A stretch of 64,000 bases of DNA. Origin: Apoda limacodes (Eukaryota; Arthropoda; Insecta; Lepidoptera; Limacodidae). Shown piece by piece: positions 43,976 to 64,000 of this stretch. The stretch covers positions 6,324,001-6,388,000 of the forward strand of contig OX291545.1 of NCBI GenBank assembly GCA_946406115.1, in the 5' to 3' direction. The notes beneath the pieces are model-generated. The model was not told the DNA's origin, did no database searches, and was given only the letters and a program-made list of their open reading frames with translations. A program made the translations under genes and the position numbers. Numbering within the stretch: position 1 is the first letter of the stretch; the number at the start of each line of letters is the position of its first letter.

Positions 43976-44324
43976 TATTAACATATATATAGTATTTTTT
44001 ACATTACGTATTAGTATATATACAATTTCTAAATGAATATATATATATATATATGACATATTTTACATATGTTTATTTAATTATGTATATGTAGGTATTT
44101 ATAGTTATTTAATTGATATTTATGTATATATTTATAATATTAGATTGTTTAGTAATAATTTACACTTATGTTTGATTATTTATTTATTTCAACGCTCACA
44201 CTATCCTAAAACTTTTAACGTTTTTTTAAATTCCTTCACCTAAAGGTTATATAAGATTGCCATTGGTACCTGTATAGTAAATACTGTTTATTTTTGATAT
44301 TGGGCAAAAAATTGTTTTCATAAT
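43976..44324. repeat. AT-rich sequence with (TA)n microsatellite
   Basis: A (TA)n tract lies at about 44,038-44,054, with flanking TATATGTA-type sequence. No gene. Confidence 0.6.
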
Positions 44325-46110: not shown

Positions 46111-46129
46111 TATTTATATCTTATTTTTA

Positions 46130-46790
46130 GATTTATGAGAGATCCTATTTTAATGAAGAAATGGATTAATGCCGTAAAGAAAGCAGAATGGGAACCAAAC
46201 ATATGGAGTAAAATATTTTTCTTACATTTTTCTGAGTCTTAATGTACGAAACCAACAGTGGGCTCTGAAAGCTAGTTATTAACGCTGTTCATACGCTTTT
46301 TCTGCCTTCATGTCATAAGTACTCACATTCTAGCCAGTCAAACTTGTCTGTTCGTACTTGTTCATATATGGTATAAGAGGTGTCCATTGATGACAAAATT
46401 AGCTCCGACCCGCATTTTATGGACACCCCAAGAGAAAAAAGTTAAAAAAACAAATAATCCCCATAGACGTTTAAAAAGAAAGTGGAAGATGTCTCCCGGA
46501 TACTTAATGAGCTGAAAGAAAAAAGATTAATCAATCAAGAGATCTTCTCTAAGTGTGGAATGTATCAGCGGCAGCTGTTATCAATAGAACGATAAAGAAA
46601 ATAAAACAATTTTCACCTGAGCTGCGTACGTTTGCACTCACCCTCCACTTTTACTCGCCAAAGGCCTATTCGTACATTAAAAGTACATTTAACACGAGCT
46701 TGCCCCATTCAAGCACGTTCAGAAAATGGTACCAGTGCATTGACGCTGCTCCAAGTTTCACTGCTGAAGCATTTAATCTAACCTGTGTAT
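46130..46790 (+). pseudogene. P-element/THAP9-like transposase, N-terminal part
   Basis: After an acceptor-like TTATTTTTAG (46,121-46,130), the frame reads FMRDPILMKKWINAVKKAEW and IWSKIFFLHFSES, the second half of a THAP C2CH DNA-binding finger with its final His. A linker with stops follows. Then LNELKEKRLINQE and the frame 46553-46792 with FSPELRTFALTLHFYSPKAY, LPHSSTFRKWYQ and FTAEAFN, the P-element transposase domain seen in THAP9 and P transposases. The catalytic RNase H-like domain is missing, so this is a truncated remnant of a P element or a domesticated relative. Confidence 0.82.
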
Positions 46791-46799
46791 GAGTATGTC

Positions 46800-47645
46800 G
46801 AGTTTATGTGTGAGTGAGAGTTGCGGCACACTCAGAGTTGGGCCGCAGAGGGGAACATTTTAGGGGTAGGTAATAATTAAGTATCTGATTAGTGCCTACA
46901 GTTCAAACATAGTACACATTACTTATTCTTATGGTTCAAATTTAAGAAATACGAGTAAGAAGTTGTTATCACTGCAGTTTCTGTCGAACGTCAATAGTTC
47001 GAAAATAGGAACAGACTTTTTGTAATCAGCTTTTTCAAGGCTGTCGCTGCAACGTTTTAGGTAGGGTAATACCCGCTAGTACACCCAATTACTTCAAACG
47101 TCGAACTAATAGGAATTTTTTGTTGCAGTAGTTCAACTATGTATAATTTATTTTTAAGAGTTGAACTACTGGGACAGTCTAGTTGAACTAACTCATAGGA
47201 GCTAATTTAGTTAGTTTAAAAGATGAAATTTAAATATTTGTACTTTATATATTTGGTAAAAATATTGAGCGTGTTTGACAAACGTCACAGAATTGTTGTG
47301 AAATCGTGGCATTCAAAGTTAATAAGAATTTGAAAAAACCTGTGACGCTCATACATCTGTTAAAAACATTAAAAAGCGAGGCGACGCGACGAGAGGTGTC
47401 CGTAGAAACTTCAAGCCAACTAACGAACAATAGAAGTTAACGATACATAAAAATAGACGACAACATGAGAGGTATTCAAATACAACTTGTAAACAATTAT
47501 TAGAGCTCGCTTTAGAAAAAATTGCGTTAAAAAATTATGGAAATTACTAGCTTTTGCCCGCGGCTCAGTCCGCCCTAAATTTGCTAATAGGAATGTAAAA
47601 AAAAGTGTGTGGAAATTCCGTTAAATAACCCATGTTACAATGAGC
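46800..47645. other. Unassigned AT-rich stretch
   Basis: It contains a hairpin (47,128-47,169) and, at 47,540-47,575, a CTAGCTTTTGCCCGCGGCT motif resembling the 3' end of insect RTE/SINE-type retroposons. No gene recognised. Confidence 0.4.
47128..47169. repeat. Perfect inverted repeat, 11-bp arms
   Basis: GTAGTTCAACT and AGTTGAACTAC separated by a 20-nt AT-rich loop. No associated gene seen. Confidence 0.85.
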
Positions 47646-47649
47646 TAAA

Positions 47650-47935
47650 GGAGTTTTGGTACTGAATAAATTTGGTCATATACTATTCTTTCAAACGCTT
47701 TGGCTATCTAACATAACTTAGGCATAGGTCTACAGATATATGACTGGTAGCATTTTTTTTGTGCACAGGTATTATAAAGGTAAACTTCCAAATGTTTGGT
47801 ACAACTAGCTCATCTAGGGACTTCTTAAAGAGAAGAGTAATATGGTAGTGATATGGTCTCTGCAGTAGCAATGAGTAAGCGATGGTCTCTGCAGTAGCAA
47901 TGAGTAAGCTGGCAGGAAGTTCATCAGTATGAGTA
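47650..47935 (-). mobile_element. LINE reverse transcriptase fragment with a 29-bp tandem duplication
   Basis: Minus-strand pieces LPASLLIATAETI, LLFKKSLDELVVPNIWKFTF, IIPVHKK and AKAFERIVYDQI are RT finger blocks. Within it, GGTCTCTGCAGTAGCAATGA plus GTAAGC occurs twice, starting at 47,855 and 47,884. Confidence 0.68.
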
Positions 47936-48289
47936 GGTTAAAATTCGGGTTTCTGCATCAGTATCCTCGCTTTGCTCGACGCCTGATGCAGAACCCACCA
48001 ATTTTATTTACCCCACTGATTTATATCAGTTCGCTGATATACTATAACCAATTGACAGAGTCCATACCAATTATTCCAAATACGATACCTTTACTATAGG
48101 TTGATAAGGCGATTGCTAATGCAGATTCTAAATGATACTTCGGTAGGTTATCATCTAAATAGACAGACAGACAGGGTTTATTTGTCATATAGAGATAATA
48201 TTTTAGCCAAGTATTGAAGTATTCATTGCACTTTGTATTTTGGGTTTAGGTTAAGTTATTAGTTTATGAGGTAAAAATTTTATTATCTA

Positions 48290-48745
48290 TAAACCATTTT
48301 TTCAAACAAGTTACATTTTTCAAGGCTCATATTATAGGATGATAAATACAATTAAAAATAACACTATTATTACGATATTCTTCATATAAACTGAGTAAAT
48401 TAGGACAGTTTATATTTTCTAAATTCATCACATCATCAGTATTATAAATATTTTAAATCCACCGTGCTTTTTCAACACCTTTGCAAAAGATCATTTTGTC
48501 TGCTAAAAAATTATTAATTTACCATTAAATGTTTCCATATGGAAGAAAGCCATCGTTCCATAAAATTTTTCTATTCCTTTTTACCCAATTAACAAGTTTT
48601 TTTCTATTGTAAGATTTTTGAAAGGGAATGGAGGTTGAACAAGAAGAACTAACATTTGATCATCAGAATAGATTGCAATTTCTTTTACAATAAACTCATT
48701 ATTTTCGATCTTAAACCCTTGCACACCAACAATGACTGATTTCAT
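48290..48745 (-). pseudogene. Polinton-associated gene U3, unknown function
   Basis: The start ATG at 48743-48745 opens MKSVIVGVQGFKIENNEFIV, followed by AIYSDDQMLVLLVQPPFPFK and, after a frameshift, KVLEKA-like remnants down to about 48,300. It starts 10 bp after the end of the large capsid gene, as if in the same gene cluster. A VGVQGF...KE start with later aromatic/Trp-rich segments recalls a small protein commonly found beside insect Polinton genes. It might be nuclease-like, but I cannot support a function. Confidence 0.5.
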
Positions 48746-48754
48746 TATAGATAA

Positions 48755-49490
48755 TTATAATGTTAGTTTTCGTACAATGTTGCTTAGAGGTCTGTATTCT
48801 ATCTGACGCTCGTTTATAATTAAACAGTAGGCGCTGGTATAATCAGGAATATCTTTTAAAGTTTCTATTTCCAAGCAAACATCAACAGGTCCTGATTTTA
48901 AGTTTTCGTTTTGCCTTGAAGAATGGTTCACAAACAATGACGCCTTTTCTTTAAATTCATAAAGATCAAGCAAATCATGCATACATGTCGTATAATATAC
49001 TTAACTTATTCTCTTAAAATTTTAAATAAGTGCTTCATAGAATTAATTAAGAAATAAGGTGACATTTTTAACATTACAATGATAAAATAAAGTATTATCT
49101 CTTTCTTTAGTAGTTTTTCTATTTGTTTGTTGTCCAAATATAACATATCTCGGTTTTTCTAATTGTGAGGCAGTTTTTACAGACCATGAACGTTTAGTAG
49201 TGTTGGGTAATAGTGGATACTCATAAAGATCCCAATTTCTAAATGCTATTTGAATAGGCTTATCTTTTTTGAAATGTTTCAATATAGCAAGCCTTTGAGA
49301 ATCGGACACTTTTACAAGCGGCATACGCCAATGTATCCTTTGAATACCTTATTCTACATAATCTTTATTGTCTGTGATAATACTGTTGAAATTAGTACAA
49401 CGTCTGTTAAATATAAGTTCATGTTTACAGTTAATGATAATTTTTCGAAAATCTTCAGCAAAACTTGTTTAAGGGTAAAATAATACAAAA
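48755..49490 (-). pseudogene. Polinton large capsid protein gene, C-terminal part
   Basis: Two well-preserved frames: 49324-49043 (MPLVKVSDSQRLAILKHF, LPNTTKRSWSVKTASQLEKP and ending NVTLFLN) and 48982-48755 (SGPVDVCLEIETLKDIP, TSAYCLIINERQIEY, PLSNIVRKLTL). These are conserved blocks of the major capsid-type protein of insect Polintons. The N-terminal part lies beyond the RTE insertion at 53,420-53,880. The two frames are separated by about 60 bp with stops. Assignment to the double jelly-roll major capsid protein is inferred from position and size. Confidence 0.72.
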
Positions 49491-49588
49491 TCCTCCTTCA
49501 TTATTAATAATTATAATAATAGTAATAATAATAAAGCCCTTTATTCTGGGGTTAGAGTTGGTGTACACGTTTTTTTATCATTTGTAAC

Positions 49589-52264
49589 TTATAAAATGTC
49601 TTTAATCCCAATGTGCCTCTTGGCATAGGCCTCCTCCAACATTTTCCACTGTGGTCTATCCTGGGTTATCCGTCTCCACCTTGGGCCAGCAGTCAATTTG
49701 ATGTCATCCTCCCATCTTATACACTGTCTTCCACGGCTTCTCTTTCCATCTCTTGGGTACCACTCTGTAACTGCCTTACACCATTTTCCTCGTTTGTCAC
49801 GCATCATATGTCCGGTCCACCTCCATTTTTGTTGGTCAATGCGTAGCAGGATATCAGTTAGTTTGGTTTTCATCCTGATGTCGGTATTTCTGACTCGGTT
49901 TCGAAGTTTTGTCCCTACTATGCTGCGCTCCATTGCTATTTGGCATTTGGCAAGTTTGTCTCTTAGAGATTTGGTGAGTGCCCATGTTTCACACCCGTAA
50001 GTTAAGCATGGTAGGATGCATGTGTTAAAAGTTTTTCTTTTCAGTGCCATGCCCAGGTCCAATTACTTCATGATTTCCCTAAGTGACCAAAACTTCTTTC
50101 AGCCATTGGCGATCCTTGCATTTATTTCTTTTGCTATTAGTTCTTTTGGAGAGATAAGCTGGCCTAGGTAGGTATATTCGTTAACAAACTATAGGATCGC
50201 TCCGTTAACAGTTATATCCACCTTTGTAGAATTTGTCATTACTTTGGTCTTAGTAAGATTCATTTTCAGTCCATCTTTCTCACTTTCCTTGTTGAGGCTT
50301 TGTATCATTTGCTCTAAAATTCTTCTCTTCAAAAAGAACTAGGTCATCCGCAAATCTGAGATGGTTTAGCCTGTATCCGTTTATATTCAGACCAAACCCC
50401 TCCCACTTCAGGTTGCGAAAGATGTTTTTAAGGACTGCTGAAAACAGTTTTGGTGATAAGGGGTTTCCTTGTCGGACGCCTCTTCTTATTGGGAAATCTT
50501 TTCCCAGTGTTTCTAGCTGTATGCAGGCCTGACTGTGCGCATAGATATTTTTGATAATGTTAGTGTAGATAGCGGGTATCCCTTGGTGTTCTAGAGTGTC
50601 CCATATGTAGTTGTGACTCAAGCCAACAAAGGCTTTAGCGTAATCTATGAAGGAAGACATTCTTGTTGTATTCATTATATTTTTCTAGTATTTGTTTGAC
50701 AGTATGGATATGGTCTATCGTAGAAAAGCCCTTCCTGAATCCAGCTTGCTCCACTGGTTGCTATTCAAATAACATGTCATCTTCTTTATCGCCTTTTTTG
50801 TGTATTAAGATGATGTGGGATTTTACGCATTGTTTCGGGATGCTGCCACTTTTCAAAATGTTTTTAAATATGTTTGTAAGAATGGGACCTAGCTCTGCTA
50901 TTGTCGCTTTCATCAGCTCATTAGTAATGTTGTCTGATCCTGGTGATTTCTCCATTTTCTAGCTCTTTATCGCTTTTTCAACCTCACATAGTAAAATTTC
51001 TGGAACAGGGTCAGTTTTGGTTTTAGGAGTTGTAAGGTTGTGGGTGTTCGCAGTATCTGTATTGTCTGTATTTTTTTCCTTATCTGCATAGAGTTGGGTG
51101 AAAAAGCGGGTAGCTAATTCGTTTATATTCTTCCGGTTTGTGATTGACTTTTCTTTTCGCTTTAGTTTTGGTATTCATTATTTTCCTACTTCACGTAATT
51201 GCTTAAAAGCATTTTTAGTACCTCCAGTCTTTTGAATATGGAATTCCAGTGTTTTTAGCCGCTTGGTTTTGCGATCATTTCTAATACTTGCTCAGAGCTT
51301 TTCTTGCTGATTTCTGCTATCCTCTTGATGTTTTCTTTTTTAGCTTGCTGTGTTATGTACTCTTTTCTCTCGTTTATAAGTAGTAGAGTTTGATCGCTTA
51401 GCTGGTGTTTCTGAGTCTTCGTGCTTTTGTTTGCAGTGCAGTAATTTGTTAGGTGATTTTCCAAGATTTCATATTTCTGTATCGGGTCTGTTGTTTCGTT
51501 TATTTGTTTTCTAATCCCTTGGTAGTTGGTTTCGCCTTGTCTGTATGGTATCGTTAATTTATTGCGTACATTATATGTTTCCGTGACAGTTTTTCTGGTG
51601 CCTTCTTAAATGAGCTTCGCACCATACGATGGTTTGTATAAAAGTTCAGCTTTGTAATGATATTAGTGTCTGTGAAAACTTTTGGGTGGTTGGTTATCAT
51701 GTAGTCTGTCTCGTTCTTTTATGTTCCATCAGGAGACATCCAATTCCATTTGTAGTTGGACAACAAATGGACCTGGATGTCTGGTTGAACAAGAAAAAAC
51801 TCCTTAAATATGGAATTAAGTATTATTAAGTCGTGTTCCATAAGAAATTCAACCAGTCTCTGTCCGTTGCGACTCCTTTTCCCGTGACCAAACGTTTCCA
51901 GTGCATATTCGTCGAAGTTTAGTCTTGCTCCTACTTGTGCATTAAAGTCACCCATTAAGATAATGTGATTCTCCATATATTTTCGTATTGTTAGTGATAA
52001 GTCTTCGTAAAATAAATCTAAGATAGATTGTTCTGCTTGTTCTGTAGGCGCGTAGGCTTGTATTATCGACCACGGCTTTTTATAGTTTGGTAGTTTCACA
52101 TTGAGTAGTTTCACTATTCTATCAGAGATTCCTATTATTTCTTGGATATACTGTTTCAGGTGTCGTTTAATTAGGAAGCCGACTCCATACTGCTTAGCTG
52201 TTTTTCCTTTTTGATATAAGATGTAGTCTGTGCATTCCTCTATTGTTTCTTCTTGTCTCCGCAT
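49589..52264 (-). pseudogene. RTE endonuclease-reverse transcriptase
   Basis: In order: endonuclease frame 52264-51719 with YGVGFLIKRHLKQYI, PWSIIQAYAPTEQAEQSILD, ILMGDFNAQVGARL (GDFN box) and the C-terminal YKWNWMSPDGT; linker 51464-51255; RT fingers 50955-50761 (SPGSDNITNELMKA, IILIHKKGDKEDD); palm 50675-50280 (FIDYAKAFVGLSHNYIWDTL with the catalytic Asp, FPIRRGVRQGNPLSPKLFSA, LRFADDLVLF with the FADD box intact); C-terminal frame 50062-49589 (MDLGMALKRKTFNTCILPCL, YGCETWAL, WRWTGHMMRD, WEDDIK). Each junction contains a stop or frameshift. Confidence 0.93.
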
Positions 52265-52580
52265 TTCACTTATACCTAAAATATCAAACTTTATGAGCTA
52301 TAGGGCATTTTCAAGCTCCAGCAAGCTTCCATGGGTCCGAAGGGTTCTCGTGTTTAATGTAGCGATGTTATATACTTTGCATCTTTTGGTTAGAGGGTGG
52401 CGGTCTAAATCTCCCGCGGGGACCAGCCGTGGTGGGAGATGTTTTATTTGTTGTGGTTTATATAGTTGTTTTGAATATCCGGTTTTTGGTAACAGTGTGT
52501 TAGTCTCTATAAGTGTTCTTGTGTGACAGTGAGTAAGTCTTTAACGCATGAGCTGAAATGCATTTTTCCTTTGGATTTTA

Positions 52581-53288
52581 TTAAGGGTTACCAGGACTTG
52601 GTGTTTCAGATCTTTTTCTTTGCTCATTTTTGTATCTGTTTTTTTCATCCTTTTTTGATTGCAAGACTGATTTTGGCAAATCTTGAGTGATATAAGAGTT
52701 GGGCTTAATTTTTTGTTTATTTTTAAGTATCTGAATTTTTTTCTGCCCAGTGGTTGTGGCTAGTAGGATTGGTCTAGTTTTGCCTGTTTTGTCACCCTTT
52801 TTTCCCAGTCGCTGCAGTCTATCGATTTCCCCTTTTTCAATATCCTCAAAAATTCCCCTAAGAGTTGATCTAACAAGCGTATTTAGATCGTCGTGATTTT
52901 CTTCCTCCGTTTCTGGGAGTCCATGGAGTATGACATTGTTTGTTCTACTGTTTGTTTCGAGGTCTTGTATTTTTTTGTTCAATTTTTCGACATCACCTTC
53001 TAATTTTGCATTTTCCTCTATAATTGGATGTAATTTTTCGTCTACCTTTTGTAGGACGGCAGCAGTAATGTTTTCGGTTATGGTTTTTGTTTGGAGATTT
53101 AATTGTTCCGTCATTTTTGTCAAAAGTAGCGACATCTCTGGTGACAGTTGAGTCGTCATATTATTACCGTGAAACGGAACGAAAGAGAAATAAATTTCTG
53201 AACGTGGTTTGTTGTGTTGGTAGCACTGCGTTTGCCGTCTGTGGTAGTGTTTGTCAGCGTATAGTATGACAATAATCTGTGATGACAA
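52581..53288 (-). pseudogene. RTE-associated ORF1 (coiled-coil RNA-binding protein)
   Basis: An open frame of 235 codons; a better start may be the internal MTTQLSPEMSLLLTKMTEQL. It has a coiled coil (VDEKLHPIIEENAKLEGDVE, KLNKKIQDLETNSRTNNVIL) leading into an RRM-like segment (NNVILHGLPETEEENHDDLN, RPILLATTTGQKKIQILKNK) and a basic C-terminus. The layout matches L1-type ORF1/transposase_22 proteins, which package element RNA. The frame is uninterrupted, so this is the best-preserved gene of the RTE; whether RTE clades of this kind normally carry such an ORF1 should be checked. Confidence 0.82.
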
Positions 53289-53419
53289 TTAAATAGGATA
53301 ACCTTCAAAGACACGGATCAAATTGATTTATCGGAATTAGATCGCATTTTGTTCTTAGTTACTGCGGATTTCGGTTGTTTTTGATGAACACACGCGCAAG
53401 GAGGATTCCGAGTGGTACT

Positions 53420-53880
53420 ATAGTACACAATGATTGTTGTTTAGAGAGCGTTTTTACGCTTGTTTAGTAATTACACCATTAACATTTCCATCCCCACATT
53501 TCAGCAGCTTTGCTTTCACCACCATTCATAGAAACCAAAGATTTCATTGTCGTCATGATTCCAGCATTTCTAATCCTTTCTATTTCAATACCATTAATTT
53601 CATATCGCATACCTTGGAAAAGAAAAGTGATGGTATTGTTAACTAGTTTAACTTCTTTCTGCTTCTTGCTAGCGGTAACCGCATCTTTAGTTGTTATAAA
53701 AAAAAATCCTTCAATATAAAATGCGCTTGCCGAAGGAAGTAAATAAATATCTTGCTGATGAAGGGTATTCTTATTTCATCATTTTCATTGTAGCTGTTAT
53801 TGTATGGATTATACGTATGAATTTCATAACTTTCAATAGAGTTATCAAATTTTGGACAATCTTACTTGAAGAAAATTCAT
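53420..53880 (-). pseudogene. Polinton large capsid protein gene, N-terminal part
   Basis: Minus-strand reading near 53,850-53,740 gives DNSIESYEIHTYNPY and NENDEIRIP, the N-terminal signature of the large Polinton capsid-type protein. Remnants follow in shifting frames to 53,430, where the RTE insertion begins. The continuation is at 49,490-48,755. Many frameshifts; plus-strand frames at 53,434-53,719 are antisense artefacts. Confidence 0.68.
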
Positions 53881-54030
53881 AATTTGAATCCAAGTGCTTT
53901 TAGAAATTCTTTATTTTCTTCGGTAATATTGTTAGATTTCTTACGTCTTGCTCGCTTGACACTACGTTTTGTAATGGTGTGTTGTTTTTTTGTACTTTCA
54001 ATTTTATGTTTTTGAATGTTATAATTATAA
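53881..54030 (-). pseudogene. C-terminus of a small basic Polinton protein
   Basis: Minus-strand reading HTITKRSVKRARRKK, then NNITEENKEFLKALGFKL and a stop at about 53,881, immediately before the large capsid gene start. The Lys/Arg-rich stretch suggests nucleic acid binding. Identity unknown. Confidence 0.45.
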
Positions 54031-54059
54031 TTAAATACTATTATTTTATTTTTCTAAGA

Positions 54060-54707
54060 TGAAGACACAATTGTATATTTTCTTTATTAAAATTGATAAG
54101 ATTTCCGTCTAAATCAAATATTTTTATCGTAATAGATGAATTTTTTTTTTTCTTATTGGAAAGTATATAATAATTTTAGGTACTTCAATTAGACGATGCA
54201 CAGGGAGAGTATTTAGGACAAATTCATGAATCATGTGTGTTGGTAAGCCGTGTTGTACAAGTCTTGAATAAAATCACATTCAATTCTTATGACAGACAGA
54301 CAATGCTAACAAGAAGGTCTGACACATGCCATTTATTTGGATCTAATATTGTAGGGGAGAATCCTAGCAATGAGCCCACACTGCTTTTTACTGTAAAATT
54401 AATTTGCTGAGAACAGTAGAACGAACATTTTGAATGTATTGTTATTAGATTTCAAATTTATTTTACATTCTTCAAAGACTTTTTGAGATACTCATTTATA
54501 TCTAAAAACTCGTATGTACCACTAGGTATTTTTATTTTTCCTTTTTGACCGTAAGCAGAAACATTATTACTGTCATGAATATTCGGTATTGAATTATATG
54601 TTGAGAATAAAGTAAACCACACTCATATTACCATCCAATATTAAAAGAGGAATAAATTCCTTATGTAGCACTGATTTATTCCCGTTGATGGTTAATGTTA
54701 AAGACAT
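54060..54707 (-). pseudogene. Polinton capsid-like protein (candidate minor capsid/penton)
   Basis: ATG at 54705-54707 opens MSLTLTINGNKSVLHKEFIP. Then FILNIQFNTEYS, GQKGKIKIPSGTYEFLDINE (54,540-54,490) and, after frameshifts, SVGSLLGF, LDPNKWHVSDLLVSI, PTHTIHEFVLNTLPVHRLIE and SSITIKIFDLDGNLINFNKE, ending near 54,060. These are the conserved blocks of a protein of about 200 residues encoded beside the large capsid gene in insect Polintons; a single jelly-roll minor capsid role is inferred from that context. At least three frameshifts. Confidence 0.65.
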
Positions 54708-55029
54708 TGTAGTAAACTGAATATTTTTTTATAACTTATTCCTTTATATTCATAATCCAAAAATTTTTCAAAAAGTTTATACATAAATGCCCGCATACAT
54801 AAAGATTAGTTTTTGTTCATTATCAAAGTTATAAAATATATCAGATCCAATGTATTTAATTTAAGGGAAAAAAGGAGGTGTGAAAATGGTGTGATTTTGT
54901 AGGAACATAAAAAAAATAATTTCAGTATGTATAGTGTATGTGTCAAAGAATTTGAATGTATAACAGGTGAGATAATATTAAATAACCGTAGGGTAGGTTT
55001 GACCGCAGTGTATCGGGGCCGCCTCACTT

Positions 55030-55500
55030 ACAAAAGACACGATTCACAAATGAATTATGTGACGTTATCGGCATATGTTCGAGTAAGCTAGACTATATAG
55101 TTATGGGTGATATGAACATAGATATAAAGCAAATCGACACAGCTGCAACTTATTACCTGAACTCATTGAGTGAGCTGGGACTTGAGTGCAGCCTAAACCA
55201 GTACACACGTATAGAGATAAGAGATAAGCACACATCTAAATCGTGTATAGACCACATCTTTAAACGTAACATAAAGGGCACACAGTGATAACTACTACAG
55301 TGAGCATTGCAAATTTAAGAAACCTAAGCTATTTGAATTATTACGTAAAACCCAAATATAACAATGTATACGGTTCAACAACGTAAGAACTATTCAATAT
55401 TTGATCCCAAAAATAATTAATGATTTGCCAGGTGAAATACAAAACATGTATGTAATGAATTAGAAATCATTAAAAAGATATCTCACTTGTATTTTGTAAG
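55030..55500 (+). mobile_element. LINE fragment: endonuclease fused to the ORF2 C-terminus
   Basis: The frame 55103-55288 has VMGDMNIDIKQIDTAATYYL and KSCIDHIFKRNIKG (endonuclease blocks). About 100 bp on come RFNNVRTIQYLIPKIINDLP and EIQNMYVMN, which belong to the C-terminal end of such proteins. The whole RT domain is missing between them. Confidence 0.75.
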
Positions 55501-55544
55501 ATGTTTAGTATCGGAAGCATGTACTTTTATAGACATTATGTATG

Positions 55545-55665
55545 TAACATATAGATTGTATATGTATTTGTATATATATATATATATATATGTGTGTGTA
55601 TGTAGATATATATATATGTATGTATGTATGTGTATATGCATAAATATATTTAGATTAAAATATAT
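55545..55665. repeat. (TA)n/(TATG)n microsatellite
   Basis: Long (TA)n, TGTGTG and TATGTATG runs at 55,565-55,640 following the LINE fragment. Confidence 0.9.
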
Positions 55666-55789
55666 ATTTAGTATAATAATGAATAAAATGGACTCTCACA
55701 CCATAGTTGAACCCATAGAGTTTTATTGATGTGAAACACTGTAAACATTGTATGATACTAGAAATGCAATGGATAAGTAAATAAATATA

Positions 55790-56065
55790 TAAATATATAT
55801 TAATAAATTCGTCAGGTGGTTTAAGATTACCGTAACTATCAAAGTATTTAACATAATTATTAATTTAAGCATAGGCTTTCCAATGAGTTCCAGGGTTATT
55901 AGAACTATCGAGGTTAATAATACCGCATTCCTTTTTAAACGGGCGTTTTGGAAGTGTATCTCTCATAAAAACCCCTCTGAAAAATGGGAAGTCATCACTG
56001 AAATTAAGAATATCGATGTTTGTCAATGCTCTTTAGGTAGCTTTTTCATTAGTTTTTTTTATTCG
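55790..56065 (-). pseudogene. Polinton adenovirus-type cysteine protease
   Basis: Minus-strand reading (frames shifting) gives HFRGVFMRDTLPKRPFKKEC, GIINLDSSNNPGTHWKAYA and YVKYFDSYGNLKPPDEFI. The GTHW His and the YFDSYG Asp are catalytic residues of the adenain/Ulp1-like fold (clan CE). The Cys-containing C-terminal segment is lost where the microsatellite/LINE sequence begins. In adenoviruses and Polintons this enzyme matures capsid proteins. Confidence 0.82.
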
Positions 56066-56125
56066 TTCTGAAAATGACTAATCCGTCCTTGTGTTCTCGA
56101 AGACATATATATAATTATTCCATTT

Positions 56126-56440
56126 TCTTATTATGCCTTTTAAGATCTTGTAAGCGTCGTTTTGCAGATTTAATAGCGTTAACTGCTCTAGCTATTCCAG
56201 CAGCTCCTCCAGCTATACCTCCTGCTGCAGTTAGCCCGCAAATATAGGTATTAAGGGCAAGATTCCTCCAACTTCAGGAACTGGTATTACACGAGGTAAG
56301 TTCACAGATGCATTTGAATCTGTTTCTTTTACAACAGCAATACCTTAATCTATTGCAGCCTTTTTGCATTCTGGCCTAAATTTTTTCAGATGATCGTTTG
56401 TAATGGAGACAATGTTTCTAAAAGTTTTTTTAAGCCAGCC
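56126..56440 (-). pseudogene. Polinton pX-like capsid-associated protein
   Basis: Minus-strand reading: LKKFRPECKKAAID, then a Gly/Ala-rich hydrophobic stretch (LTAAGGIAGGAAGIARAVNA, near 56,240-56,180) and a basic C-terminus (KSAKRRLQDLKRHNKKME). A Gly/Ala membrane-like segment followed by a basic tail is characteristic of the small pX-like protein encoded between protease and capsid genes in Polintons. Two stops are present. Confidence 0.65.
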
Positions 56441-56713
56441 CCGGCCTTAACTTTTCCTTGTTTTGTTTTCCTTTAACATTGCTTCTTAGTTTTCCTCACT
56501 ATTTTCTCATTATCTTTATAAAAATAAAAGTAAAAACAAAAGGTTGGTTAAAAACACTGTTTCTCGAATGAAATACAGACTAAGAATGTTAGTAAAACAA
56601 TAATAGAATTGCTTATAAAACTTCCAACTTATCTATCTAACTATTTTCTTCTGAAGGAGAACCCAACCATTTTATAAATAACTTTCTTTCCTTTCTCTTA
56701 ATAAATTTTTCAA
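56441..56713. other. AT-rich intergenic stretch of the Polinton
   Basis: No further gene recognised; probably 3' end of the integrase gene and spacer. Confidence 0.4.
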
Positions 56714-57536
56714 CTAGGTAAATATTTGGATTCTTGGTTTTTTGTAATTCCTCAGAGTAAAAAGAGCCCTTGATAGGTCTACGTCTCTCAACTTGGTGAT
56801 ATATGTGACAGGGCTCATTTTCTGCACTTTAGCTATTGAAAATATTTCAGTTGACCAATTTGGTGTATATTCTTTCTCAAATGTCCCTTTATACTTACTA
56901 ATTCGAACATAATCTTTCAATTTAACTTTTTAGGTTTTTAATTTATAGTTAGACATTGCTTTATACCTTTGTTAAGTTTGTTTCTTATTGTTATTATTGA
57001 CTTGGTTTGGTTTTATACCAATATAGTTCTATGTTTTATGTTGTTATATGTAATTATTAAATTAAAAAGTGTGCTATTTATCCATTTTTAGTTTCCCTGT
57101 AGGCTAAATTGCTTATACAATCTAGTTTCTAATGTTCTTATAAATCTTTCTAATATTGACGCTTTTTTCGTTGAAAAAGCTGATTAATTATTTATTTTAT
57201 GTAAATCTAATAAATGTTTATTTTTTTTATTGTAGAATTCAGTTCGTAAATCAGTTTGCAAATTTTTAGGAATACGACCTTTTTGTAACAAGTCTTTAAA
57301 GGTATTTAAGGACAGTCTTTACTTTTTTGTTTGAGAGGATATACCCATGCATATTTTGAAAATGTATCTTTTACAGCTAAAATATATTTGTAATTCGAAT
57401 TTTCTTTATTAATTAACTGACTATCAATAAAAACAGCTTGCCATAAGTCATGTACATCTTTCATCACTACATGCCTACGTATAAAGTTTTTTCTTGCTTG
57501 TTTGTGTATTTCATTTACTACAATATCTTTACTCAT
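56714..57536 (-). pseudogene. Polinton retroviral-type (DDE) integrase
   Basis: The frame 57536-57306 starts MSKDIVVNEIHKQARKNFIR and has DVHDLWQAVFIDSQLIN and YKYILAVKDTFSKYAWVYPL (rve core start, first catalytic Asp region). Downstream in shifting frames come NLQTDLRTEFYN (second Asp) and STKKASILERFIRTL (Glu). The frame 56920-56714 carries the chromodomain-like C-terminus (DYVRISKYKGTFEKEYTPNW). It would insert the element into the genome. At least three stops. Confidence 0.88.
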
Positions 57537-57539
57537 TAT

Positions 57540-57835
57540 TTTCTGATTTTTTGAGATAGTGAATCTATTTTGTTTTGAGTTCCAGTAACTTCCGCTCCTA
57601 ATTGATTTAAAGTTTGATAAATTGATTTTAATTTTTTTTATATATCTTTAATAACATTGTCAACATATTCTTTTGTAGCACAGTCCCCTAAATCAATTGG
57701 TTTTCTTATATTTCTGGTAACCCTATTCCTAGCATTTAAAGTACTTCTTCTGAAAACACAATAGTTGGTTCTTCATATTGCCTAATTTTATGCTTTTTGA
57801 ACACATGTATTCCAAATTTGTCAACATTCATATTT
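57540..57835 (-). pseudogene. Polinton-associated small gene U2
   Basis: ATG at about 57,828 opens MNVDKFGIHVFKKHKIRQYE, and the reading continues through remnants to LGAEVTGTQNKIDSLSQKI (57,600-57,545) just upstream of the integrase start. The end is a short coiled coil. Proteins of this size with an MNVDKFG start are found near Polinton integrases; the function is unknown. Confidence 0.5.
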
Positions 57836-57888
57836 GACTTCTTTTATGCAACTGAGTAAAAAAATATTTTTGCACGTTATTTATTTCT

Positions 57889-58735
57889 TAACAATTCCAG
57901 CTTCTTTTAATTCTTCTATAATGGAGATAATTTCATTGTCATGACTTGTATTACCAGCGTCTTTAGAGGCAATTAAACCTTTCAATCTATCTATAAGTTC
58001 GTTAGGATCGTCCCAGTATATTAAATATGTATTTTATTTAATTTTTTTTGTGTTGGTAATGTTCTTCTTATATGTTTTTAGTTTCGAATTCATTAAATAT
58101 AATTAAACAGAATCCTCATTTATGAGCATTTGTACTAATCAATATAATTTTTTACACTAGTTTATCTTTTTCTGAAATTAGCTGTGTATTAGGTTTACTT
58201 TGAAACAGTAATTCCTATAGTCCTGGAGTAACGTCATAACTTTTACCATTAATTGTCATCAATGATATTTTGGTTGATGAATCGTCTTCAAATTGGAATG
58301 TAATATCAAAAAGGAGCATTCCCTATCATTCAGTTATTACCTTTGCGTCTCACATAAAAAGCAACATTCAAAGCTTTACGTTCACCATGTTCTTGCTTTG
58401 AAGTGGAAGTTACTATTTATGCCACATAATCTTGTGTTTCAAGAGTTTTAAGTTCCTCATTAGCATCGTCTCTTATCTTATAATCATCATCATCATTTAA
58501 ACTGTTATCTACATCACTTTAATAAATACTAGCAGTATCTGACTACTTCTTATCTTTATAATCTCTACATGTTTTACCAAAGGTAACCATAGCTTCTAAT
58601 GCATCTCTTATTGGTTTGGACATTTTAGAACTTATTGTTTGCATGTCATACTCTACTTGTCGCATTTGCTTTAATTTATTTTTAATGTTTTTACCCGACT
58701 GTATTCACTGTTTTTTTTATATTTGGTTCCATGAT
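57889..58735 (-). pseudogene. Polinton-associated gene U1, unknown function
   Basis: Minus-strand pieces: MRQVEYDMQTISSKMSKPIR and DALEAMVTFGKTCRDY (58,670-58,560), an acidic stretch (NSLNDDDDYKIRDDANEELK), SLMTINGKSYDVTPGL then LFQSKPNTQLISEKDKLV (58,270-58,150) and a C-terminus YWDDPNELIDRLKGLIASKD with IISIIEELKEAGIVKK (58,020-57,889). A coiled-coil N-terminus is followed by a conserved globular region seen in insect Polinton-like loci. I know no function for it. Four or more stops and frameshifts. Confidence 0.6.
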
Positions 58736-58789
58736 AACTACCTTAAACACATCTGGTGATAGTTGTAGGATAAGACTGAATGGCTTTGG

Positions 58790-58974
58790 CTTATATCGTT
58801 ATTAGTATTTGTGAGATACGGTGTTAATCAAAATTTAATTATTCAGTTCACAATCTTTATTTATAATCGAACAAGTGTAAGGGTCTGACCATATTTGTAA
58901 TGCTAATTATATGAAATTATTCCAGCTCATTTCTGAATTAACATGTTCTTCATAAAAATGTTTTAAATTTTATT
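58790..58974 (-). pseudogene. Polinton packaging ATPase gene, C-terminal part
   Basis: Immediately after the LINE tail, minus-strand reading gives LKHFYEEHVNSEMSW and, after a frameshift, WSDPYTCSIINKDCELN, the C-terminal blocks of the A32-like ATPase. The N-terminal part is at 61,861-62,364, on the other side of the LINE. Confidence 0.65.
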
Positions 58975-58999
58975 TGTTTTCTATACCACTAAGGTGGCA

Positions 59000-59670
59000 A
59001 CCTAGCACACGGTCCGCCTGATGGAAAGCGGTCACCGTGGCCTATGGACGCTTGCAATACTAGAAGTATCACTCGCGCGTTGCCGACCCTTCAAAAATCC
59101 AATAACTTCTTTCTTGAAGAACCCCATACTGTAGTCCTAAGAGAAAACCTTGGCAGGGAGCTCATTCCACAACCTAAGCGTTTGCGGCAGGAAGTTTCTC
59201 TGTAACCGCACTGTACGCGGTTCTAAAGTGTGAGAATGAAATTGGAAGTGGGCATCATTTCGAACAATTCCTCAGAACACATCCCATTGTACAAGCGGTA
59301 GAACACATACAGGGAGGCAAAGTCTCTCCTCAGATTTAAGGGTTCGATACGGAAAGTGAGTTTGAGATCGTCGACAATTCTCACAGCCCGTCGTTGTACC
59401 GAGTCAAAAGGGCCAAGCTGGTATCCGGGTGCACCTGCCCAGAGATGGCAGCAGTACTCCATATGGGGCCAAACTTGCGACTTGTAAAGCAGCAACCGCT
59501 GCTCCGACGTGAAGTACTACCTCGCTCTGTTGAGTATACCTAGTTTTTTTGGACGTCAGCTTCACCTTATCTAGTAAATGAGCTCGGAACTGAACATCGC
59601 TGGAGATGTCAACACCAAGGAACCCAATGCTCTTGGAGATGGAGAGGGGAGGGTTTTAGATTTGTGGAAC
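59000..59670 (-). pseudogene. CR1-like LINE RT, thumb and C-terminus
   Basis: The frame 59495-59223 reads MLLYKSQVWPHMEYCCHLWA, GAPGYQLGPFDSVQRRAVRI and IEPLNLRRDFASLYVFYRL. The C-terminal part (ELPAKVF-like) continues to about 59,060. It corresponds to 30,660-31,330 of the intact copy. Confidence 0.9.
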
Positions 59671-59674
59671 TTAG

Positions 59675-60670
59675 GTTATATTAGTATACTCTTTCATTAT
59701 ATAGTAACAGCTTTTAATGCACAATATCCTAATCACATAGGGTGATTCTTAACACTTAAATATCTAGATCACAGCTACCTAATTCACAATCAAATAGGAC
59801 TACCATAATAAATAGAAAGATAGCCAAACGCAAGCCTGCCTACACAGATTTTAAGTGTAGTTTTAAAAGCCTTTATTAGGGAACTAGTACACTCAGGTAC
59901 CTCTTCGGCCTAGAGCCCGATTCGATGTCTTGCTCGCTGTAGGCACCCCTAAGGTCAGCACCGCCGTAGAAAGAAGACGCGGATGGGACTGATTTTACGT
60001 GGCCTAACAGCGTGTGGTGAGTAGTGAATATGCCGCCCGTGGCAGGCACAAGATAAGGCCGCACGTGAACGTAGCTCGCCAGTAGCTTCGGCGTAGAGCA
60101 GGTCGCCCCGTAACCTTCGTGTGTAGCGGTGTTCAAGATAGCACCCCTACTGCACAGGCCGAAGGTTTGGAGTCAAGGAGACTCCGGGCAGGCCGAGGAT
60201 TTGGAGTTTAGTAGACTCCGGCCTTCCCCAGTAAAAGAACAGCAAAGCAGCTGCCTTGCGCCGTCGTTAGACAACAAACGTGCACCCGCATACAAAGACG
60301 TCTTCTCACGGACCTCAGTTTAGGCGTAGAGCCGTAGTAAAGCAATATATAAACGTGTATATATATACTAAGAACTGTACGAGGACGGTTTTCTTTTATA
60401 GCATAGAAGTAGATATGCAGCAATTTGTAATTTAATAATAGAATCCGTGAAAATAATTATCAAAAGAATATTTTCACGACTACGTCAAGTATCTACGTAA
60501 AGTGAACTGTTTTGACTTAGCGATGTCAAACATCTAGAGATTCTTTGATCTCTAAATTTATATTACCACAGTGGTAATGGACCTAAGAGCGAATGCCCAG
60601 AAACTTCTATCGTTTCCTACATCATCCGGTCCTTTACCGGAGACGGACCACCGGAAACGGTCGTTCCGTT
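59675..60670. other. Unidentified 1-kb insert within the LINE
   Basis: Absent from the other copies of this LINE; it replaces about 350 bp that carry the RT palm. It contains a frame of 86 codons on the minus strand (60136-59876; MNTATHEGYGATCSTPKLLA and so on) that I do not recognise, an AATAAA-type signal read on the minus strand near 59,868-59,873, a 34-bp tandem repeat and a cluster of hairpins at its right end. It may be an LTR-type or other element; ends are not defined. Confidence 0.5.
60155..60222 (+). repeat. 34-bp tandem repeat, 2 copies
   Basis: CAGGCCGAAGGTTTGGAGTC...AGACTCCGG and CAGGCCGAGGATTTGGAGTT...AGACTCCGG. Each unit contains a GGAGTC/GACTCC-type inverted pair. Confidence 0.9.
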
Positions 60671-60680
60671 ATAACGGTTC
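60446..60680. repeat. Cluster of short hairpins
   Basis: Inverted pairs in quick succession: CGTGAAAATA/TATTTTCACG (60,447-60,479), AGAGAT/ATCTCT (60,537-60,556), TACCAC/GTGGTA (60,566-60,578), CCGGTCC.../CCGGAG and CCGGAAACGG/CCGTT (60,627-60,675). It ends at the LINE junction. Confidence 0.65.
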
Positions 60681-61860
60681 GTATGCGTCTGCCGGACAAA
60701 AGCTAGCCACCAATTTGCACAAACTCTCGGGCACTCCGTAAGATGGTAACTTCGATAGAATACCCCGGTGCCAGACCCGATCCAACGCTTCGCTATGTCT
60801 ATGCTACATGCCAATGCCTCCCCCTGACTCTTTATGGCTAGTGCCCATCGGTGTATGAGATACACTAGAAAGTCACCAGTCGAGCGACCGTGGCGAAAGC
60901 CATATTGACTGTCACTAACCAGGTCGTGTTCTTCTAGGTATCTTAGAAGCTGTGTGTTGATCACACGCTCCATCACCTTGGATCTGATCTATCGCCCTTT
61001 TTCCGGTGTACATTCGCAGTCTTCCATGAAGACGGAAACTGCCTAGTATGGTAGGAAAGCGTGAAGAGGCGCGTGAGTATATGACATAACTCAGGAGCAC
61101 ACTGCTTAAGCACTACAACTGCTGGTATACCTTCTGGCCCACTCGACTTATGAACGTCTAGAGAAAGCAACGCCCGACGTACCTCCCGCTATGTTATGGA
61201 GATTTCCGGCATAGTCTTACCGCACCACGGTATAGTAGGTGGAACAGCGCCTTCATCGTTCATATTCGAGTTTGAGGTAAAGAGACCGCCCAGTAGTTCG
61301 GCTTTCTCTTTAACACTATGGGCCAACTCAAAAGTTTCTTTCGCCAGATTTGACAAGTGACCTTAAGGCATGACTCACAGAAGGATATTTCGCAAGTCGC
61401 CCACCTATTTTGCCGATGAATTGAAATTTTGCTCTGGCAGTTGCTTTCTTACTGAACGTCGAGGCAGCATTTAATTTGCGTTTTACCGCAGAAATATTCG
61501 GATCCTTATTATAACGAGCCGTGGTACAAGCCTCATTTGCAGTTTGCTTAAGAATTTTAGCTTCTCTGCAAGACCTATTAAACCACGGTCGTTTTTTGTC
61601 GCGGGCAGCTATTGGCGGGTTAGGAATATAACATTCCATACCAGCGAGGATTGTCTCAGTGACTGCGGCTGTGCAGACGTCAGGATCTTTTGAGCTAAAG
61701 CAGATCTGCCTCCTCGGGTACCATGCATAAAATTCTTGCAATCCATCTCAGTCTGCTGACTTATAATGCCACACACGACGCCAATTAGTTGGCCCAGATG
61801 GATCAGGTTGTGTGCATGACACTTGCTTCCGAGTTTTACTTGTTGTGCCCTACCTCTCTT
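60680..61860 (-). pseudogene. CR1-like LINE linker and RT fingers
   Basis: The frame 61741-61328 gives the linker (MQEFYAWYPRRQICFSSKDP, TILAGMECYIPNPPIA, ATARAKFQFIGKIGGRL). The frame 61170-60973 has LSLDVHKSSGPEGIPAVVVL, and 60976-60617 has MERVINTQLLRYLEEHDLVS and GRSTGDFLVYLIHRWALAIK. A frameshift follows ACSIDIAK. It ends at about 60,672, before the palm boxes. Confidence 0.9.
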
Positions 61861-62364
61861 TTATTTTTCATCTTGTCTAAAAATAATTAAAATGTTTGAA
61901 TTTTGTCGTATAACTTGTTTAGGTATCTTAGAGTAAGTTTGTGATAGATAAAAAAAATCTATCTCTTTATGCTTACCCATCGAAAAATAACTACGGATAT
62001 TAATCTGATTTTCACAAGTAACATCATCAAAAATAAATATGGATTTGTTTAAAGCTTCACTAGGCATTATAATATCTCTGTCATCTTGGAACAGGAATAA
62101 ATTTGTTGCAGGTATTTTATTGAGGACATTCTGTAAAAACTAATATTTAGGCTGAAATGTTGTTTTAGAATCAATGTAGACATTTTTAAACTTTAACCCA
62201 TTTTTATGAAGTAAGAGACTGAGCATTATATTGGTTTTTCCGCAATTAGATCGACCGCAGATAATACACTGAATAGAATTTGGTAAAAGAACGCTATGTT
62301 TAATTTTATTATTATTTCCTAAAGAAACGGGTTGCTTGACTAACTTCATCTTTCCGTCTAACAC
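61861..62364 (-). pseudogene. Polinton packaging ATPase gene, N-terminal part
   Basis: One frame with a single in-frame TAG at 62140-62142. The first segment (62364-62140) begins MLDGKMKLVKQPVSLGNNNK and has the Walker A motif GRSNCGKTN. The second (to 61861) has the Walker B motif FIFDDV and FFYLSQTYSKIPKQVIRQNS, where the conserved Gln/Asn sensor region lies. This is the A32-like/FtsK-HerA ATPase that Polintons, adintoviruses and large DNA viruses use to load genomes into capsids. It is cut at the C-terminal side by the LINE at 61,860. Confidence 0.87.
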
Positions 62365-62536
62365 TGGATTTCAATATTAATTTATTAAATATAAAAACAT
62401 TAAATAAGTTTCACTTCCAATTCCTACTTTTTTGTTATAATTAATTTATTTGACCTACTAAACAAGTTATAACAAGTATTTAAATACTTATGTGAGAGTG
62501 TAGTTGATTAATATCTTAGCAACGTCACAAACCCTT

Positions 62537-62610
62537 AAACAGAAGTAAATTGAAACCAATCTACCTAGCACACATAAACGTATTAGATTGGTTTCAATTT
62601 ACGTCTGTTT
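62537..62610. repeat. Long near-perfect inverted repeat (26-bp arms)
   Basis: AAACAGAAGTAAATTGAAAC plus CAATCT (62,537-62,562) and its reverse complement at 62,585-62,610, with one mismatch in 26 and a 22-nt loop. It lies 170 bp upstream of the ATPase gene start on the minus strand. Confidence 0.95.
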
Positions 62611-62853
62611 ATTGTGTTAATTATGCATTAACTTTCAAGCTGAATAGTTATTTTATTCTACTTTTATTACTTCGAATATTAGTAACTGGTAAGTAAAAAC
62701 ACTAAAAATATTTAAATTTTTATTTAATTATTTAAAATAATTTTGAAGTAGTGAGTTAATTGTTGAAAATAAATAAATATTATTTTACTATCTAACTATA
62801 TTATAGCTGCGTCTAATTTAATTTGACTTTTATTTTTTTTTTTGTTTTAGATC

Positions 62854-63000
62854 ATGCAGACTCCTAAATTTGACATCTATAATGTTAGCCAGGATTTTAA
62901 AGTTGAAACTGATGCTCAAAATGTGAACGGCTGGCTCGAAAAAGTTGAAAAACGAAAACTAGACTTGGTCAAAGCTACTATGGAACAAGAAAAACATTAA
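62854..63000 (+). CDS. Unidentified small frame after a splice-acceptor-like site
   Basis: ATG at 62854 opens MQTPKFDIYNVSQDF, continues NVNGWLEKVEKRKLDL and stops at TAA 62998-63000 (48 codons). It is preceded by a T-rich tract ending TTTTAG (62,845-62,850), which looks like a 3' splice site. After the stop a second frame (SSSFIYKIGDKRKGRYII, then IDIEAIGESDRDRA) is open to about 63,150, so the true gene may be longer with one frameshift. It is on the strand opposite to the Polinton genes. I do not recognise it. Confidence 0.4.
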   Translation: MQTPKFDIYNVSQDFKVETDAQNVNGWLEKVEKRKLDLVKATMEQEKH

Positions 63001-63154
63001 AGAAGAGGAAAGGAAACGATGAATCAAGTTCATTTATTTATAAAATTGGTGATAAAAGAAAGGGAAGATATATTATCAAAATTGACATTGAAGCCATCGG
63101 CGAAAGCGATAGAGATCGAGCTGCAAGTGCCCAGTATGCAGTGATGGACCCGTA

Positions 63155-64000
63155 AGACGAAAAATTAGATAATACAGAAAAAAATATTCAAAAAAAATTG
63201 CAATACTCAATGTTGATCTTTTAATAAAATATATTAAATAAGATATTTTTGTTCTTTTTCTAATTGTTATTCCCCGTTACGTTTTAATATAGAAGTTATG
63301 TTACTGTTTTTAAAACCAATAACTGGTGGAATTTATAAAGTATAACCCTAAGACAAAGAGAGTGGACAGTGCATTTTCTAACCAGCTGTAAAACGGGCTT
63401 ACAAGTGTGACGGAGCCGAAGATTGATTTACAATATGTTCTGTTCTGACCATTTGTTTTTCTTTTTCTTTGTAAAAAGCGACAAAGGATCGCAGATTAGC
63501 TTTATCTCTTCCTAAAGAGTGGTGATCGTGTTAAGGGCGTGATCTTTTAGCTGTTACAATTGCAAATGCATTCGTGCCGTCTCTTACTGTTTTGTGGAAA
63601 AATCTATTTGCTGTCCTGCTAAATTTGCGAGTAATTGCAAGCTACAAAAATAGGCCCTTAGGAAGCTTCTTGCGCAGTCCATAGCACAGATTACAGAACT
63701 CGAAGTCTGTGATATAAGCTATATTGATTTTAAAAAATACCGTCGCTATTTTTTTTATATTTTTAAAGACAATTCTTATGAATCCTGAGTTACTTAAATA
63801 ATATTTGGTTTGCACTATCTTCTAAATCATCTTCATTTGTTATTAAACTAAATGAAATAGGGTGCATATACGGGGCAACTAAGATACTTACCACCCTAAG
63901 ATACTTAGATTGAATTTGAATTAATTTGCACCTAACCTATCAGCATACTATGAGGGTCAAGTGGTTATGACGTCTTCCTATCATTCAAAGGGTAGGAGTC
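63155..64000. other. Unassigned right end of the window
   Basis: AT-rich. A Cys-rich reading (SCYNCKCIRA) at about 63,550-63,640 is in a frame with stops and is not convincing. No element ends or genes identified. Confidence 0.4.

What the first reader, a model, noticed from the sequence alone, without database searches (positions are those of the whole stretch)
48290..62367. Decayed Polinton (virus-like DNA transposon) hidden under later insertions
Minus-strand fragments of a packaging ATPase, retroviral-type integrase, adenovirus-type protease, pX-like protein, capsid-like protein and large capsid protein lie in one orientation over 14 kb. Seen: motifs such as GRSNCGKTN, FIFDDV, GTHW and the DDE integrase blocks. 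Known: this gene set defines Polintons/Mavericks and adintovirus-like elements. Inferred: all pieces come from one insertion. Automatic annotation would see only LINEs here, because most genes are in pieces.
Basis: partly seen in the sequence, partly recalled or inferred. Interest (0 to 1): 0.88.

Follow-up and report, generated by a model that had tools for sequence, protein, structure and literature searches.

The report
Dead virus-like transposon under later insertions
This stretch of an insect genome (likely a moth or butterfly) holds the broken remains of one virus-like DNA transposon, a Maverick/Polinton, cut up by three later insertions; dozens of sister copies lie elsewhere in the same genome, which also carries many near-identical relatives with unbroken genes and so has likely been invaded again recently.

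Summary
One decayed Maverick/Polinton lies on the minus strand from 47,932 to about 66,375 (past the window edge). ATPase, ORF2, integrase, PLA2-type CAP ("pX-like"), adenovirus-type protease, ORF6, double-jelly-roll capsid and ORF8 are present as broken pieces, in the order published for Spodoptera frugiperda Mavericks. The capsid piece has 37 other matches of at least 75% identity in the same genome. Fetched sister copies lack the inserts at 49,509-53,458, 54,861-55,791 and 58,970-61,865, so one insertion was broken up later. Sister copies share the left terminus; of 9 examined, the 3 whose two ends could be read all have perfect 6-bp target duplications. PolB lies beyond ATPase in sister copies but is almost entirely deleted here. 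The locus is an ordinary fossil, a new member of a known kind. Less ordinary: the genome holds at least two other Maverick lineages with many unbroken capsid or integrase frames; 20 fetched copies of each, picked among equal-scoring matches, show 99.5% and 99.7% median pairwise identity, pointing to recent bursts.

The parts
47932..47947 (.). left terminus of the element, AGTAGGTTAAAATT...
   Evidence: same 16-mer (up to 3 changes) at the edge of 6 of the 7 other loci L002-L008, with unrelated DNA outside it; also in 9 of 9 loci (up to 4 changes; L002 is in both sets)
47966..48014 (.). left arm of terminal inverted repeat; partner at 66327-66375 beyond the window
   Evidence: 49 bases, 90% identical, inverted, E 3.6e-13
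48282..48751 (-). ORF8 (function unknown), broken
   Evidence: intact 160-aa relative maps over residues 1-159, E 9.8e-27
48761..49508 (-). major capsid protein, C-terminal three fifths, broken
   Evidence: PF21738 E 1.5e-31 and 6.2e-14; residues 165-415 of an intact relative, E 1e-64
49509..53458 (-). LINE inserted in the capsid gene, 13-bp duplicated target
   Evidence: absent in L003, L004, L005, L006, L007, L081, L082, L084 (13-base overlap of flanks) and, with slightly shifted edges, in L008 and L083
53488..53855 (-). major capsid protein, N-terminal part, broken
   Evidence: PF21738 E 1e-10; residues 22-141 of an intact relative
54053..54713 (-). ORF6, broken; possibly the minor capsid (penton) gene, fold untested
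   Evidence: residues 13-235 of an intact relative, E 2.6e-22
54757..54813 (-). protease, C-terminal piece with CGHLC
   Evidence: residues 115-133 of a Peptidase_C5 relative, 68% identical
54861..55791 (.). insertion in the protease gene (looks like a LINE endonuclease fragment with a microsatellite; label from the translation), 12-bp duplicated target
   Evidence: absent in L081, L082, L083, L084; 12-base overlap in three of them
55802..56062 (-). protease, N-terminal piece with GTHW and FDSYG
   Evidence: residues 10-98 of a Peptidase_C5 relative, E 6e-27
56052..56428 (-).
   Evidence: residues 71-201 of a relative with PF08398 in its residues 2-43
56616..57536 (-). retroviral-type integrase, frameshifted, with a C-terminal part that is chromodomain (PF00385) in 3 of 20 relatives; an Asp invariant in 20 of 20 relatives (first of the catalytic triad by recalled spacing) is Val here
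57560..57832 (-). small unnamed frame between ORF2 and integrase, broken
   Evidence: frames; open 93-aa version in sister copy L083
57884..58732 (-). ORF2, broken
   Evidence: frames; collinear with sister copies at DNA level
58838..58969 (-). packaging ATPase, C-terminal piece
   Evidence: residues 171-214 of relatives
58970..61865 (-). LINE inserted in the ATPase gene; an 82.7% identical stretch lies at 29118-30316
   Evidence: absent in L010, L011, L012, L081, L082, L084; self comparison
61867..62349 (-). packaging ATPase, N-terminal piece, one in-frame stop
62536..62611 (.). 28-nt inverted repeat (hairpin) between ATPase and the plus-strand frame, shared by sister copies
62854..63152 (+). 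small divergent plus-strand frame, broken here
   Evidence: open 123-134 aa versions in sister copies L019, L023, L024
63153..64000 (-). right part of the element leading to the PolB gene, which is almost all deleted just past the window (junction 64421/64426)
   Evidence: matches to sister copies up to 64421; PolB in sister copies

Best explanation
The region is one dead copy of a Maverick/Polinton DNA transposon whose genes are broken by stops, frameshifts and deletions and split by three later insertions. Shown: eight minus-strand genes collinear with sister copies; a shared terminus and inverted repeats; 6-bp target duplications in sister copies; loss of almost all of PolB here. Inferred: when alive, the element was likely copied by its own protein-primed PolB, inserted by its integrase (6-bp stagger), and probably packaged by its ATPase, protease and double-jelly-roll capsid. 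Also inferred: after a burst it stopped spreading and its copies decayed without selection, since pairwise differences among 20 sister copies in a 300-base capsid stretch are nearly even over the three codon positions (0.036, 0.037, 0.045). The host is likely a lepidopteran.
For: Homologues of ATPase and integrase with collinear mapping. Capsid Pfam matches in three pieces. Intact relatives in the same genome identify protease, CAP and capsid by Pfam and map onto the window pieces. Sister copies give the empty sites of all three inserts, two with 12-13-bp duplications. Left terminus common to copies with different flanks, inverted repeat E 3.6e-13, 6-bp target duplications in 3 of 3 copies with both ends readable, of 9 examined. 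PolB (PF03175, 3.2e-6 and 2.3e-8) in sister copies on the same strand next to ATPase. Gene order as in Table 2 and text for the Sf Mavericks in PMC5803895.
Against: This copy has no usable PolB and its outer right terminus is cut by a LINE, so its own target duplication cannot be read; in 6 of 9 sister copies the right terminus was not found either. Pfam alone did not find the protease, CAP, ORF6 or ORF8 pieces; a sister protease and a five-sequence profile of sister proteases matched no viral protease in the PDB. The PLA2 end of CAP was not matched here. The 58,970-61,865 LINE shows no clear target duplication. Host order rests on the names of a few relatives.
Confidence: 0.97

Rival explanations
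1. Several unrelated virus-derived fragments accumulated here independently, and their order is a coincidence.
For: The pieces are short, in different frames and separated by LINEs.
Against: Sister copies carry the same pieces contiguously, mostly at 82-93% DNA identity, without the LINEs. For 7 of 20 integrase relatives the listed longest-contig length equals that of an ATPase relative, suggesting one contig.
Confidence: 0.01
2. A polinton-like virus or other DNA virus (not a Maverick) integrated by chance through host repair.
For: Capsid, ATPase and protease are shared with such viruses (passages of PMC11071308).
Against: It carries its own RVE integrase, sister copies carry PF03175 PolB, and they have fixed termini and 6-bp target duplications.
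Confidence: 0.02
3. Part of the locus has been kept for a host use, for example as a source of piRNA or antiviral small RNA.
For: None found here; small RNAs from viral elements are described for arthropods (abstract start of PMC10675110 in the listing).
Against: The coding pieces are broken, and differences among copies are nearly even over codon positions; neither excludes a non-coding role.
Confidence: 0.05

Closest known systems
Sf Maverick 1 and 2 of Spodoptera frugiperda (PMC5803895; outline, whole Maverick section and passages read; figures not held)
   Same: Genes ATP-ORF2-INT-CAP-PRO-ORF6-ORF7-ORF8 listed in the same order; ATP 228 aa, INT 310 aa with chromodomain, PLA2-type CAP; a large PolB, on the same strand in Sf Maverick 1
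   Different: This copy is dead and has lost PolB. The paper says the eight small ORFs are followed by PolB in Sf Maverick 2; in the sister copies here PolB lies on the ATPase side, so its place may differ. The paper reported no PY (double-jelly-roll) protein; here the gene in the ORF7 place matches PF21738, so ORF7 is likely the capsid gene there too (not tested on the Sf sequences). A small plus-strand frame next to ATPase is not in its list.
Polinton/Maverick elements of other animals (passages of PMC4028283 and PMC11071308)
   Same: pPolB, RVE integrase, packaging ATPase, cysteine protease, double-jelly-roll capsid
   Different: 3 of 20 integrase relatives are annotated with a chromodomain; CAP relative with PLA2 domain; no phylogeny was made here
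Adintoviruses (named in PMC11071308's reference list; the paper itself is not held)
   Same: Animal-associated Maverick-like gene set (recalled)
   Different: Not compared; membership untested

Membership tests
[quoted passage not shown]
   Met by the element family: PF03175 at 3.2e-6 (L019) and 2.3e-8 (L022) in sister copies. This copy has lost it: about 2.0 kb missing at 64421/64426; what remains is a 50-aa match (64575-64426) to the frame next to the PF03175 frame of L019, which has no Pfam match itself. Primer function not testable.
Maverick/Polinton | retroviral-type integrase | tested here: met
   20 relatives, all rve; collinear over 57536-56616; an invariant Asp lost
Maverick/Polinton | A32/FtsK-type packaging ATPase | tested here: met
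   PF04665 in sister L082 at 3.4e-5
Maverick/Polinton | adenovirus-type cysteine protease | tested here: met
   PF00770 in an intact relative that maps to the window pieces; direct searches with window or sister pieces were weak or negative
[quoted passage not shown]
   PF21738 in three window pieces, in a 306-aa frame of L004 at 9.8e-81
Maverick/Polinton | minor capsid (penton) protein | tested here: inconclusive
   ORF6 is a candidate by place; no meaningful Pfam match
Maverick/Polinton | terminal inverted repeats and 6-bp target duplication | tested here: met
   Inverted repeat in this copy; 6-bp duplication in 3 of 3 sister copies with both ends readable, 9 examined; this copy's right end is cut, so its own duplication is unread
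polinton-like viruses (PLVs) | mostly lack pPolB and RVE integrase | tested here: not met
   both present in the family
adintoviruses | placement with adintoviruses in PolB/capsid trees | not tested
   no tree built

The most novel reading that the evidence does not exclude
The host genome is in the middle of a new invasion: at least two further Maverick lineages, with unbroken capsid and integrase frames and 99.5-99.7% median pairwise identity among the scattered copies compared, have spread within it very recently and may still be moving, while the window shows what an earlier wave of the same kind looks like after death.
Probability: 0.6. Interest if true: 0.65.

Novelty: new member of a known kind. 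Interest (0 to 1): 0.42.

Why it matters
As a locus it is a fossil of a known kind. It is a clean demonstration of how a virus-like transposon disappears from view under LINEs and can be read back from sister copies, with exact empty sites and target duplications. The setting matters more: old and very young Maverick lineages in one genome make it testable whether these elements still jump. Published counts seen here are modest: 14 for Maverick in the Helicoverpa armigera table (PMC7764229, passages) and 1,741 copies in a table of a ten-species noctuid study (PMC10298559, passages).

Tried and rejected
A 21-base inverted pair (45794-45814 / 62657-62677) looked like a terminal repeat but does not extend and lies away from the real ends, so it is rejected. 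PolB was first sought by Pfam in 75 frame pieces of the flanks (41.5-48.3 and 62.4-64 kb) and in 79 of the 103 listed pieces of 8-41.5 kb (the other 24 lie in two large LINE stretches): no PF03175; region 1-8 kb was not scanned. Five scans of viral contigs and one of prokaryote genomes found no relatives. PHROGs gave nothing significant. A structure model of a capsid relative was poor (mean pLDDT 53.7) and was not searched. ORF8 of the young lineage also hit 38362-38502 weakly (E 0.002); taken as chance.

Full report
What was checked. The finding names six virus-like gene pieces in one orientation. Pfam finds the double-jelly-roll capsid domain (PF21738) in three separate frame pieces, at E 1e-10, 1.5e-31 and 6.2e-14, covering profile positions 1-56, 119-218 and 250-315 in order. 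The ATPase stretch has 353 relatives at E up to 1e-3 among 371 candidates, the best at 73% identity over 95% with a Pox_A32 domain; among the 120 rows shown, those named after an organism are from Parnassius mnemosyne and Plutella xylostella. The integrase piece has 20 relatives among 21 candidates, all with an rve domain and 3 with a chromodomain. Two of 7 capsid relatives are named, both Parnassius mnemosyne. The host is therefore likely a lepidopteran; no tool names it.

One gene, two pieces. Mapping the relatives back onto the window, ATPase residues 1-169 fall at 62349-61867 and residues 171-214 at 58969-58838, on either side of a LINE. Of 120 ATPase relatives tested, all hit the first piece, 117 hit both and 104 leave a gap of one residue; none hit anywhere else in the window. 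Integrase relatives (18 of 20 over the full stretch) map to 57536-56616 with changes of frame and internal stops. An aspartate invariant in 20 of 20 relatives, the first of the catalytic triad by recalled spacing, is a valine here, so the integrase is dead on several counts.

The window in its genome. The own-genome search was usually busy but answered three times. The window is contig C5:6324001-6388000 of an 800-Mb, 31-contig assembly. The capsid piece gave 150 scored matches of 422 candidates; counted by hand: the window itself, 37 at 75% identity or more (two of them 1.5 kb apart), 15 at 60-71% and 97 at 54-58%. DNA right of the ATPase (62371-62870) matched at 40 scored places of 53 candidates, itself included, most at 84-91% identity. 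So the window copy is one of a lineage of dozens.

Empty sites. Sister copies show the three inserts as later events. The LINE at 49509-53458 is absent in L003-L007, L081, L082 and L084, with a 13-base overlap of the flanks, and, with slightly shifted edges, in L008 and L083. The insert at 54861-55791 is absent in L081-L084, with a 12-base overlap in three of them. The LINE at 58970-61865 is absent in L010-L012, L081, L082 and L084, without a clear duplication. L081-L084 run from ATPase to ORF8 in order at 85-92%, apart from deletions or insertions of their own and one 173-base piece at 71%.

Ends. Copies stop matching at the same left edge. The 16-base terminus AGTAGGTTAAAATTGG (up to 3 changes) starts at 47932 here and marks the edge of L002, L003, L004, L005, L006 and L008, with unrelated DNA outside; L007, which overlaps L006, shows none. 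The left repeat arm (47966-48014) pairs inverted with 66327-66375, 49 bases, 90%, E 3.6e-13. A LINE then cuts the right end, so this copy's target duplication is unread. Of 9 sister copies examined, all show the left terminus and 3 also the right one; all 3 have perfect 6-bp duplications: ACTGAC, GGTAAG, TATAAC.

PolB. In sister copies it is there, on the minus strand like the other genes: PF03175 at 3.2e-6 in L019 and 2.3e-8 in L022. In the window copy positions 64421 and 64426 are nearly adjacent, while L019 and L022 hold about 2.0 kb between them. What remains is about 150 bases, a 50-aa match at 84% to the frame next to the PF03175 frame of L019, and a 43-base tandem array whose units match the same frame. 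PolB was thus lost from this copy.

Protease, CAP, ORF6, ORF8. Direct searches were weak: Pfam gave nothing credible; the window protease piece had only two PDB hits at E up to 10, adenovirus proteinase (0.77) and cysteine protease S273R, an African swine fever virus protein by recall (1.3); a sister protease and a five-sequence profile matched no viral protease. Intact relatives of a younger lineage in the same genome settled it: the protease is Peptidase_C5 (1.7e-5), CAP has a phospholipase A2 domain (7.7e-6), the capsid is PF21738 (1.6e-106), and all three, with ORF6 and ORF8, map onto the window pieces in order. The PLA2 end of CAP was not matched in the window copy.

Known relatives. The order ATP-ORF2-INT-CAP-PRO-ORF6-ORF7-ORF8 with PolB, ATP of 228 aa, INT of 310 aa and a chromodomain integrase is that of Sf Maverick 1 and 2 (PMC5803895: outline, both parts of the Maverick section and passages; its figures are not held). 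That paper found no PY protein; the PF21738 match here sits in the ORF7 place, so ORF7 is likely the capsid gene.

Age and neighbours. Twenty old-lineage copies (all 20 fetched) differ pairwise by a median 4% over the 300-base capsid piece, nearly evenly over codon positions (0.036, 0.037, 0.045), and the window copy by a median 6.3%: consistent with decay without selection. In contrast, 51 capsid matches have open frames of exactly 413 aa (hand count); 20 copies of that group (19 with 413-aa and one with a 414-aa frame) have a median pairwise identity of 99.53%, range 98.65-100, over about 1.26 kb. Of 150 scored integrase matches (745 candidates), 71 have 315-aa frames at 59-60% identity and 19 have 310-aa frames (hand count); 20 of the 71 have a median pairwise identity of 99.74%, with 23 of 190 pairs identical and all 20 frames open over the fetched stretch. 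Both sets of 20 were picked among matches of equal score, which biases identity upward. Two copies of the second lineage differ at 4 of 2,597 bases around capsid and ORF8; an unbroken protease frame was seen in the one copy looked at. The counts are lower bounds. Recent bursts are the likely reading; that the elements still move is not shown.

Literature. Searches listed no title or abstract start reporting such young Maverick bursts in a lepidopteran. The library holds open-licence papers only, the lists were capped, and only passages of PMC7764229, PMC10298559 and PMC6327564 were read. PMC10298559 reports a Maverick peak about 40 million years ago in S. frugiperda.

Verdict. The finding is real and rightly interpreted, with wider borders. 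As a locus it is a fossil of a known kind; the young lineages found on the way are the more interesting lead.

Noticed in passing
own genome G000, many contigs (e.g. L025-L044, L085-L087, L088-L107): At least two other Maverick lineages with unbroken frames: 51 capsid matches with 413-aa frames (20 copies of the group fetched, median 99.53% identity) and 71 integrase matches with 315-aa frames (20 fetched, median 99.74%); both samples picked among equal scores.
   Followed up: partly
own genome, e.g. C20:25839077 with C20:25841975: A further small lineage of six capsid/integrase pairs at 61-63% identity to the window pieces; two have 417-aa capsid frames and four have 311-aa integrase frames.
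   Followed up: no
62854-63152 (+): Small lysine-rich plus-strand frame divergent from the ATPase, open at 123-134 aa in sister copies L019, L023 and L024; the L019 version has no Pfam match.
   Followed up: partly
63299-63709 (-): Minus-strand stretch matching 139-151 aa open frames of sister copies L019 and L023; nature unknown.
   Followed up: no
64484-64827 (beyond the window, L013:984-1327): A 43-base tandem array whose units match the PolB-side frame of sister copies.
   Followed up: partly
1-2420 and 4899-7316: Two 97.9% identical direct copies of a 2.4-kb stretch, each with an open 424-aa frame and a 126-aa frame that look like a hAT-type transposase (label recalled), beside 104-base tandem repeats.
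   Followed up: no
41505-48300 or 62371-64000: A P-element-type transposase piece (PF12017, 1.6e-19) and a THAP match among the 75 flank frames scanned; which frame was not identified.
   Followed up: no
39493-40078: A 43-base tandem array, 13.6 copies, 90% matches.
   Followed up: no
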